A program made the position numbers and the translations under genes. This document shows positions 2,347 through 5,300 of a DNA stretch of 41,648 nt, one piece after another (positions within the stretch are counted from its first letter, which is position 1; each line of letters starts with the position of its first letter). The stretch comes from Gammaproteobacteria bacterium (GTDB lineage Bacteria; Pseudomonadota; Gammaproteobacteria; Pseudomonadales; Azotimanducaceae). The notes beneath the pieces are model-generated. The model ran no database searches. It was not told where the DNA came from and saw nothing but the letters and a program-made list of their open reading frames with translations. Location of the stretch: NCBI GenBank assembly GCA_028824555.1, contig JAPPDJ010000109.1, positions 1-41,648 of the forward strand, given 5' to 3'.

Positions 2347-5300
2347 ATGGAGTCCGACACCGGGTCCGCAATCACCGACGCCACGGCCCCCGCCGATGCG
2401 GTGCGCCGTCCCCCTCGCGATCTGTCGCCGGCCATTGCCGCCACCGCGCCGGGGCAGCTTCGCGTCATCAAGCGCAACGGCGCCGTCGTGGTGTACGACG
2501 ACGACAAGATCCAGATTGCCCTAACCAAGGCATTCCTCGCCGTCGAGGGCGGCACGGCGGCCGCCTCGTCGCGCATTCGCGAGTTGGTGGCGAGTCTTTC
2601 CGGCGTCGTCACCGCCACCTTCCATCGCCGCCTGCCATCCGGCGGCACCCTCCACATCGAGGACATCCAGGATCAGGTCGAACTCGCGCTGATGCGCTCC
2701 GGCCAGCACAAGGTCGCGCGCGACTATGTGCTGTATCGGGAGGAGCGGGCCCGGGTGCGGGCGGCCAAGACCACCGACGACATCGCGCCGCTGCCCGAAA
2801 TCCACATCACGGACGCGGACGGCGAGCGTCGCCCGCTGCCCTTGGCGCGCATTCGCACGCTGGCAGACGAAGCCTGTGCCGGGCTCGACGACGTGACGCC
2901 CGGCCGCATCATCGAGGAGGCCCTCGCCAACATGTACGACGGCATTTCCGCCGCCGACGTGGCCACCAGCCTCATCATGACGGCGCGCACGCTCGTGGAG
3001 GAGGAGCCGAACTACACCCACGCCGCGGCGCGGCTGCTGCTGGACCGGCTGCGCAGCGAAGCGCTCTCCTTCCTGGGTGTGCGCGAAGAGGCGACGCAAG
3101 CGGAGATGACGGAGGTCTATCCAGAGGCGCTGGCAGCGTTCGTGGACCGCGGCATCGAGCTCGAGTTGCTTGCGCCGGAACTCAAGCGCTTCGACATCGA
3201 GCGGCTCGGCGCGGCGCTGAAGCCGGAGCGGGACCTGGAGTTCACCTATCTCGGCCTGCAAACGCTCTACGACCGTTATTTCATCCACTGGCAGGACACC
3301 CGCTTCGAGTTGCCGCAGGTGTTCTTCATGCGCGTGGCGATGGGCCTCGCGACCCAGGAGGACGACCGCGAGGCGCGCGCCATCGAGTTCTACAACCTGC
3401 TGTCCTCGTTCAACTATCTGTCTTCGACGCCGACGCTGTTCAACGCCGGCACACTGCGCTCGCAGCTCTCGTCCTGCTACCTCACCACGGTCTCCGACGA
3501 CCTAGACGGCATCTATAGCGCCATCCGCGACAACGCCCTGTTGTCGAAGTGGGCCGGCGGTCTCGGCAACGACTGGACGCCGGTGCGTGCGCTCGGCGCC
3601 TACATCAAGGGCACCAACGGCAAGTCGCAGGGGGTGGTGCCGTTTCTGAAAGTGGTCAATGACACCGCCGTGGCCGTGAACCAGTGCTTCGCCCCCGATA
3701 CGCGCATACACACAGCCGACGGCATCAAGGCGATTCGCGATGTCACCACCGACGACCTAGTGCTGGGCCGGCGGGGCGAATACCGCCAGGTGCTGAAGAC
3801 CATGACGTACAACCAGACCGACGCCATGGTGGAAGTGGACGTCAAGCACGCCGCAGCGCCGCTTTGCGTCACGGCCGGCCATCCGGTGTGGGCCATTCAG
3901 GGCGTGCCGAACGGCCAGTCGGTGGACCGCACGCTCGGCTGGCTTGCCAAGGGCAAGGTGCGTCCCGCGTGGGTGGAGGCTGGCGAGCTTCGCGAAGGCG
4001 ACTACGTGGCGCAGGCGATCCCGCAGGAGGTCGTCCCGGTGGCCGGCCTCGACGACGACGCCGCGCGCCTGTACGGCATCCTTCTCGGTGGCGGGCACTG
4101 TTCCGAGGACGGCTCTGAGTGGAGCGTCGGCGGCAACCGGGATACCGGTCACATCGCCTTCGTGCAGTCGTATCTCGAAGGTCGGGGCGTCCATTTCTGG
4201 ATGACGGATCGCGACAACCGCGAATGGCGAATCCGCTGGGCGGACGGCATCGGCCTCAAGCGCGATGGCACCACCGGCCGCTACCCGGCCGCGGGGCGAC
4301 AAACGCTGCCCTTCAACCGCGAAGACATCTACGACCGCGATGGCAACAAGCGCATCGCCCGGCGGTTCGCGCACTTGCCTGAAGCGCAGACGCTGAGCCT
4401 CATCGAGGGCCTGCTGCAGACGGCCGGCAAGGTCCGGCGGGGCAAGGAGATCATCTTCGCGAGCGAGTCCGAGGCGCTGGCCGAAGGGGTGCGCTACCAA
4501 ATGCTGCGGCTGGGCGTTCCCACCGCCGGCAAAAGCCGCCCGCGAGGAGCCCGCGATGTCCACATCCCCGCGGTGCGCGCCATCGCCTGCCGTATGAACT
4601 GCCAGGCGCTCACCAAGCGCGACTGGGTGCCGCTCGGCAACTGGGTGTTCAGTCCCGTGCGCGGCACCGGCACCATGACGCCGACGCCCTTCGTGTGCGA
4701 TCTCAAGGTGGAAGGCGACGAGTCCTACATGACCACCGCCGCGCTCGCGCACAACGGCGGCAAGCGCAAGGGCGCGGTGTGTGCCTACATCGAGACGTGG
4801 CATCTCGACATCGAGGAGTTCCTGGAGCTGCGCAAAAACACCGGCGACGACCGCCGCCGCACGCACGACATGAACACCGCCAACTGGGTGCCGGACCTGT
4901 TCATGAAGCGGGTGTTCGAGGATGGCGACTGGACCCTGTTCTCCCCCTCCGACGTGCCGGACCTGCACGACCTCTACGGCGCCGCCTTCGAGGCGCGCTA
5001 CAGCGCCTATGAGGAGATGGCAGAGAAAGGCGAGATCAAGCTGCACAAGAAGGTGCGCGCCCAGGCGCTGTGGCGCAAGATGCTCTCGATGCTGTTCGAG
5101 ACGGGGCATCCTTGGCTTACCTTCAAGGACCCGTGCAACATCCGCTCGCCGCAGCAGCACACCGGCGTTGTGCATTCCTCCAACCTTTGCACGGAGATCA
5201 CCCTCAACACCGCCGACGACGAGATTGCCGTGTGCAACCTCGGTTCGGTGAACCTGGCTCGGCACATCGAGGACGGCAAGCTCGACGACCGCAAGCTGCG

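What the first reader, a model, noticed from the sequence alone, without database searches (positions are those of the whole stretch)
3685..4755. Intein-like domain in NrdA with Gly at the +1 position
The insertion in nrdA has the full set of splicing blocks (Cys1, TxxH, terminal His-Asn) at a conserved site between VNQ and GGKRKG, yet the first residue after it is Gly. Canonical splicing needs Cys, Ser or Thr there. A-type bacterial intein-like domains lack this nucleophile and some have been shown to splice or cleave. In an essential enzyme, failure would be costly, so this should be an efficient example or a regulated step in dNTP supply. I recall RIR1 insertions in other proteobacteria flagged as BIL domains, but have not verified homology.
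Basis: partly seen in the sequence, partly recalled or inferred. Interest (0 to 1): 0.75.

Follow-up and report, generated by a model that had tools for sequence, protein, structure and literature searches.

The report
NrdA intein with glycine at +1
A self-removing protein insert sits in an enzyme that bacteria need to make DNA building blocks, yet it lacks the residue that textbooks say such inserts need for rejoining the two halves; the same odd arrangement recurs in related bacteria and in some viral contigs, so it probably works by a simpler chemistry.

Summary
nrdA (2347-6366) carries a 357-residue insert at exactly 3685-4755; intein-free relatives read QGG there, so +1 is truly Gly. It is a full intein, not a small BIL domain: Cys1, TxxH, block-F Asp, His-Asn, predicted Hint plus LAGLIDADG fold (pLDDT 90), inserted in loop 2 of ribonucleotide reductase. 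Both LAGLIDADG acids are lost in the window copy. Searches with the intein alone gave 26 distinct relatives; with the window, 27 of 27 have Cys1, TxxH, Asp, His-Asn and Gly+1. They come from several bacterial families and one viral contig. Pattern scans that presuppose HN|GG added two viral inteins and one viral nrdA apparently split inside the intein. The window genome and 14 of 16 other carriers show no second full PF02867 reductase, and none shows NrdD. So it very probably splices. Best mechanism: Cys1 thioester, Asn cyclisation, then direct attack by the freed Gly amine, as proposed for type A BIL domains. Splicing was not testable here. New variant of a known kind; ten searches of the held library showed no paper on Gly+1 NrdA inteins.

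The parts
2347..6366 (+). nrdA, class I ribonucleotide reductase large subunit, one open frame of 1339 codons plus stop, intein in frame
   Evidence: NCBIfam PRK07207 1700 bits, Pfam ATP-cone, lgN, lgC
2347..3684 (+). N-extein, ends ...AVAVNQ
3685..4755 (+). intein, 357 aa, Cys1 to His356-Asn357
   Evidence: AlphaFold model pLDDT 90.4; PDB fold matches to inteins
3685..3687 (+). Cys1, N-terminal nucleophile, 27 of 27
3871..3882 (+). block B TxxH (Thr63..His66), 27 of 27
4081..4095 (+). first LAGLIDADG motif, catalytic Asp replaced by Gly (LLGGG; Asp in 23 of 27)
4411..4428 (+). second LAGLIDADG motif, catalytic Asp replaced by Ala (LLQTAG; Asp in 23 of 27)
4699..4701 (+). block F Asp339 (taken as position F:4), 27 of 27; not the Cys of class 3
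4732..4734 (+). Thr350, six residues before the terminal His, 27 of 27; family marker and candidate compensating residue
4750..4755 (+). terminal His-Asn, 27 of 27
4756..4761 (+). Gly+1 Gly+2 of the C-extein, in loop 2 of the reductase
4756..6363 (+). C-extein, aligns from residue 443 of the 5im3 chain and 295 of E. coli R1 (2r1r)
7353..8708 (+). nrdB, small subunit (start codon not certain)

Best explanation
It is a homing-type intein of the ribonucleotide reductase large subunit that splices although the C-extein starts with Gly. Steps: (1) Cys1 attacks the Gln-Cys bond to form a thioester, helped by Thr63, His66 and Asp339 (residues present; step inferred). (2) Asn357 cyclises with help of His356 and frees the C-extein with an N-terminal Gly-Gly (residues present; step inferred). 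(3) The unhindered Gly amine, held in place by the folded Hint domain, directly attacks the Cys1 thioester, with no branched intermediate and no final acyl shift (inferred; the route proposed for type A BIL domains; it resembles how sortase uses oligoglycine, a comparison from my own knowledge). The Gly is kept because it lies in loop 2, which couples effector to substrate, where Cys, Ser or Thr would probably not be tolerated (inferred). The endonuclease of the window copy looks dead, so the intein is now held in place by its essential host.
For: Empty site and borders exact. 27 of 27 inteins keep the residues of both the N- and the C-terminal reaction plus Gly+1; cleavage at one end only would let one set decay. 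Window lineage: omega 0.07-0.15 in the splicing parts, 0.28-0.37 in the endonuclease part (pairs with L003 and L004). No other full PF02867 reductase in the window genome or in 14 of 16 other carriers, among them 3 single-contig genomes (G012, G013, G456); NrdD 0 of 1 and 0 of 16. The break falls inside loop 2 (loop 2 role in PMC3267527, passages), so unjoined halves would have a cut substrate loop. The intein seems to move: that of viral contig L104 groups with that of Thiodictyon (96/97) although their exteins are 50% identical. A viral nrdA in two adjacent ORFs keeps IntN (109 aa) and IntC (61 aa) with Cys1, TPEH, Asp, HN and Gly+1; if unjoined halves sufficed, the intein pieces would be useless. 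In one NrdA (G342) a second intein at another site has a normal Cys+1. Mechanism precedent: PMC4031507 (passages).
Against: No splicing was observed; all is sequence. BIL domains without the nucleophile mostly cleave (PMC4031507, PMC7664689, passages), so efficient ligation by aminolysis lacks a good precedent in what I saw. Over all same-family pairs the median omega does not separate Hint (0.25) from endonuclease (0.26). G395 also carries an intein-free nrdA and G173 a second reductase, so there the intein-bearing copy may be dispensable. In G093 the last part of nrdA lies in another frame with 2 stops, so that gene may be broken or misassembled. By plain identity the nearest intein to L104 is L053 (61%), not Thiodictyon (58%). 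The split viral gene is a single contig and could be a frameshift error.
Confidence: 0.6

Rival explanations
1. It splices, but through an internal side chain that takes over the acyl group (for example Thr350), so a block F type branch replaces the missing +1 nucleophile before the Gly amine is acylated.
For: Thr six residues before the terminal His is in 27 of 27 and in 24 of 24 distinct Gly+1 C-terminal strings picked by a pattern, the split viral one included, against 1 of 20 picked inteins with Cys/Ser/Thr at +1 (15 of 20 have Ala); also in L133 and L134. [quoted passage not shown]
Against: The exception, L059, has this Thr with Ser+1, and I recall a Thr there in Mxe GyrA, so it is not unique. 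Position was counted back from His without alignment, the pattern missed several Cys+1 inteins, the comparison set is mostly one type (my reading: NrdJ), and the Gly+1 inteins are related, so the counts are not independent. Thr63, Thr236 and the Ser/Thr positions 323 and 347 are also hydroxyl-bearing in 27 of 27.
Confidence: 0.12
2. It only cleaves itself out; the two halves of NrdA stay unjoined and work as a two-chain enzyme, as in phage Aeh1.
For: Lack of a +1 nucleophile favours cleavage. Aeh1 NrdA works as two polypeptides (PMC3653736 and PMC3267527, passages).
Against: The cut would lie inside loop 2, between the conserved Gln and Gly-Gly. AVNQ and GGKRKGA flanks are invariant in 27 of 27. 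A split viral gene keeps the intein halves.
Confidence: 0.15
3. The intein is inactive or removed otherwise (RNA intron, pseudogene) and another reductase serves the cell.
For: Endonuclease acids are lost in the window copy; the genome is a 182-contig assembly, 96% complete.
Against: Frame and splicing residues intact, purifying selection; no Rfam match at gathering scores in 2300-8800; single PF02867 gene, no NrdD. Monomeric class II reductases were not searched with a family of their own.
Confidence: 0.04
4. A partner in trans or a host factor supplies the missing step.
For: None direct.
Against: The same feature occurs in distant bacteria and viral contigs, which makes a shared partner less likely; gene neighbourhoods were not compared.
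Confidence: 0.04

Closest known systems
Class 1 LAGLIDADG inteins (RIR1/NrdA inteins; folds of TliVMA 7qsu and PI-SceI 1vde/1jva)
   Same: Cys1, TxxH, F:4 Asp, His-Asn, Hint plus LAGLIDADG layout, conserved site in an essential enzyme
   Different: +1 is Gly, not Cys, Ser or Thr, in every member found here
Type A bacterial intein-like (BIL) domains, e.g. 2lwy
   Same: His-Asn end with no +1 nucleophile; proposed ligation by the free amine on the N-terminal thioester
   Different: BILs sit in variable, non-conserved regions and mostly cleave (passages); this one has a LAGLIDADG domain, sits in loop 2 of an essential enzyme and its profile matches 2lwy only at E 0.95
Class 3 inteins
   Same: non-standard use of nucleophiles
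   Different: they lack Cys1 and have Cys at F:4; here Cys1 is present and F:4 is Asp
Aeh1 phage split NrdA
   Same: reductase large chain whose gene is interrupted by a homing element
   Different: there the chains stay separate and a homing endonuclease gene, not a splicing element, makes the break
Aquifex aeolicus NrdB intein (PMC8772380, passages)
   Same: LAGLIDADG intein inside the active region of a reductase subunit, shown to splice in a non-native host
   Different: joins Leu229 to Cys230, i.e. normal Cys+1

Membership tests
Class 1 intein | Cys or Ser at position 1 | tested here: met
   27 of 27 Cys
Class 1 intein | block B TxxH and terminal His-Asn | tested here: met
   27 of 27; the viral L134 has SxxH
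Class 1 intein | Cys, Ser or Thr at +1 | tested here: not met
   Gly in 27 of 27
Class 1 intein | Hint fold, here with LAGLIDADG domain | tested here: met
   predicted model and fold matches; Pfam LAGLIDADG_3 22.6 bits against cut-off 22.5 for the intein alone, 19.4 within the whole protein; Hint_2 and Hom_end_hint under their cut-offs
Class 1 intein | excision with extein ligation | not testable with these tools
   needs expression
Class 3 intein | no Cys1 and Cys at F:4 (WCT motif) | tested here: not met
   Cys1 27/27, Asp339 27/27
Class 2 intein | Ala1 with Cys+1 | tested here: not met
Type A BIL domain | His-Asn end without +1 nucleophile | tested here: met
Type A BIL domain | located in non-conserved, variable regions | tested here: not met
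   inserted in conserved loop 2 of NrdA
Type A BIL domain | sequence similarity to BIL domains | tested here: inconclusive
   2lwy E 0.95 with the family profile
Homing intein | mobility between intein-free alleles | tested here: inconclusive
   patchy presence (15 of 200 family genomes; intein-free congeners) and the virus-Thiodictyon grouping fit; endonuclease activity untested, acids lost in the window copy

The most novel reading that the evidence does not exclude
NrdA loop-2 inteins form a separate mechanistic class: true homing inteins, cis and naturally split, that by descent splice without any +1 side chain, ending with attack of a C-extein glycine amine on the Cys1 thioester, perhaps tuned by the family Thr350; their spread among bacteria and viruses shows the reaction is efficient enough to carry an essential enzyme.
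Probability: 0.5. Interest if true: 0.8.

Novelty: new variant of a known kind. Interest (0 to 1): 0.62.

Why it matters
A published rule says inteins insert before Cys, Ser or Thr because that residue completes the reaction (PMC2814812, passage). A whole intein family that has to work without it, in an enzyme cells usually cannot do without, makes nucleophile-free protein ligation directly testable and could give tools that leave a glycine and not a cysteine or serine at the joint. It may also explain why this site keeps Gly at all: loop 2 demands it.

Tried and rejected
Other register of the borders: only Q|C...N|G restores the empty site. Class 3 and class 2 routes: motif absent. RNA intron: no Rfam match at gathering scores. 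Phage (55 records) and plasmid (3 records) matches to the intein alone: the five read (phage hits H1, H3, H5, H9 and plasmid hit H22) are other inteins with Cys+1; the other 53 were not read (H21 was fetched, but only its annotation seen). Named phages that matched the split viral NrdA looked at first as if they held inteins; of the four fetched (H24, H26, H35, H37) two print VNQGGKRKG, and in the other two (810 and 790 residues) my pattern found nothing, so those are intein-free only by length. Relatives of the split intein halves in viral contigs: only the same contig. E. coli-type loop pattern HNGGVRGGA: 0 contigs; HNGGRRRGA: 2 stretches, both in frames of 25 residues or fewer. Of the 5 contigs, one is L104's own, one (L120) is unrelated, three are L121-L123. 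Flank identity is higher among intein carriers than between carriers and non-carriers next to the site (first 45 bases downstream 0.858 against 0.756; 11 carriers, 4 non-carriers), compatible with co-conversion but also with shared descent. The extein tree has a very long viral branch and is of little use for placing L104. Glu346 in place of the usual block F His is not specific to the Gly+1 family, since three Cys+1 inteins have Asp-Glu-Ser or Asp-Glu-Thr there too.

Papers: for PMC4031507, PMC7664689, PMC7765530, PMC5874633, PMC3653736, PMC8772380, PMC9669993, PMC3267527, PMC7090010, PMC5050341, PMC517821, PMC4853749, PMC5784728 and PMC2814812 I saw found passages only; all others only as search listings. 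The older BIL papers (Amitai 2003, Dassa 2004, Southworth 2004, Aranko 2013) were seen only as cited there. InBase entries on RIR1 BIL are recalled, not seen.

Full report
What is there. The frame 2347-6366 encodes NrdA of 1339 residues; 982 of them belong to the class I reductase large subunit, in two blocks around a 357-residue insert at 3685-4755. Of 19 intein-free large-subunit loci fetched (L026-L044), 19 have QGG at the site (15 VNQGGKR, 4 SQGGVRGG), so the insert lies exactly between Gln and Gly-Gly.

It is an intein. Pfam scores are modest (Hint_2 24.9 bits, under its cut-off of 28.4; LAGLIDADG_3 22.6, just over 22.5), but the AlphaFold model built on the 27 aligned sequences has mean pLDDT 90.4 and its best solved matches are whole LAGLIDADG inteins, TliVMA (E 2.2e-17) and PI-SceI. 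The window copy has lost the acid of both LAGLIDADG motifs; each acid is kept in 23 of 27. Against L003 and L004, its two nearest relatives, omega is 0.07-0.15 in the splicing parts and 0.28-0.37 in the endonuclease part; in three close pairs with intact endonuclease acids the latter is 0.09-0.15, in a fourth (L024/L094) 0.23. Over all same-family pairs of 16 sequences the medians do not differ (Hint N part 0.25, endonuclease 0.26, Hint C part 0.25; 113, 118 and 115 of 120 pairs usable), so the contrast rests on the few close pairs.

The family. Searching with the intein alone gave 12 named loci, 15 of 200 genomes of the same family, 9 of 369 of the class with E below 1e-100 (25 of 369 at E 0.001), 2 of 293 of the order (10 at E 0.001), 1 of 398 of the phylum, the window's own (10 at E 0.001), and one viral contig; the own genome is counted in each genome search, and the named loci overlap the G genomes. 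These make 27 distinct inteins, the window's included. All 27 have Cys1, Thr63, His66, Asp339, Thr350, His356, Asn357, Gly+1 and Gly+2. Three more viral contigs came from a pattern that requires HN|GG, so they do not count as independent evidence for Gly+1: L133 and L134 hold complete inteins of 361 and 308 residues, and L132 holds nrdA in two adjacent frames, the first ending after 109 intein residues, the second with an ATG 8 bases after the stop codon, behind AAGGA, and 61 intein residues before GGKRKG. The weaker profile matches whose ends I could read have Cys, Ser or Thr at +1; some could not be read that way (L070 and L079 gave none).

Why it should splice. The window genome has one PF02867 reductase gene and no NrdD. 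Of 16 other carriers, 14 have no other full PF02867 gene (exceptions: G173 with a class II-like gene holding a Cys+1 intein, G395 with an intein-free nrdA; G134 has a short fragment besides, and in G093 the last part of nrdA lies in another frame with 2 stops), and NrdD was found in 0 of 16. The C-extein aligns from residue 443 of the 5im3 chain and 295 of E. coli R1, in loop 2, which couples effector to substrate binding (PMC3267527, passages; that this stretch is loop 2, and that the residue before the intein equals yeast Gln288, is my reading of the alignment and of recalled numbering). Cut ends there should ruin the enzyme. Both reaction centres of the intein are conserved. The intein of viral contig L104 groups with Thiodictyon (96/97, both on long branches), though by identity L053 is nearer (61% against 58%), while exteins are near 50% identical, which suggests transfer. 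A split copy keeps both halves of the intein.

How. With Cys1 but no +1 side chain, the standard transesterification cannot occur. The route proposed for type A BIL domains, thioester, Asn cyclisation, attack by the freed amine (PMC4031507, passages), needs only what is present, and glycine is the least hindered amine. A Thr six residues before the terminal His is in 24 of 24 Gly+1 strings against 1 of 20 others, a lead for a compensating residue, weakened by relatedness, by the way the set was picked and by an exception.

Known or not. Reductase inteins in Gammaproteobacteria are reported (Methylococcus MCA2543, PMC517821; Thiomargarita, PMC4853749; passages), without mention of the +1 residue in what I saw; whether they belong to this family was not tested. 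Ten full-text searches, nine about inteins and one about loop 2, showed no paper on Gly+1 NrdA inteins in their listings; most subscription papers and InBase are not in the library.

Source of the window. Nearest named relatives are uncultured Gammaproteobacteria bins SB0662_bin_60 and SB0665_bin_27; that these come from sponges is recalled.

Noticed in passing
L132 (viral contig IMGVR_UViG_3300008448_000002), 2119-2301 and 2313-2639, minus strand: nrdA split inside a small Gly+1 intein: IntN 109 aa, IntC 61 aa, 8-base gap with AAGGA before ATG; a possible natural split intein without +1 nucleophile, or a frameshift error.
   Followed up: partly
window 6471-7325: A DNA methylase of the N6/N4 type (PF01555, 148.9 bits) lies between nrdA and nrdB in the same direction.
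   Followed up: no
L113 (G342 C1): One NrdA with two inteins: the Gly+1 one in loop 2 and a Cys+1 one at AVC|..HN|CNLGSVNL.
   Followed up: partly
L114 and L115 (G395, single contig): An intein-free and an intein-bearing nrdA paralogue in one genome with very similar C-terminal parts; the intein (L058) has the longest branch of the family tree.
   Followed up: partly
G002 C327 and C571: Two intein-bearing nrdA genes in one assembly (5% contamination), perhaps two strains or a contaminant.
   Followed up: no
G093 C6:188939-189244: The end of an intein-bearing nrdA lies in another frame with 2 TGA stops; broken gene or assembly error.
   Followed up: no
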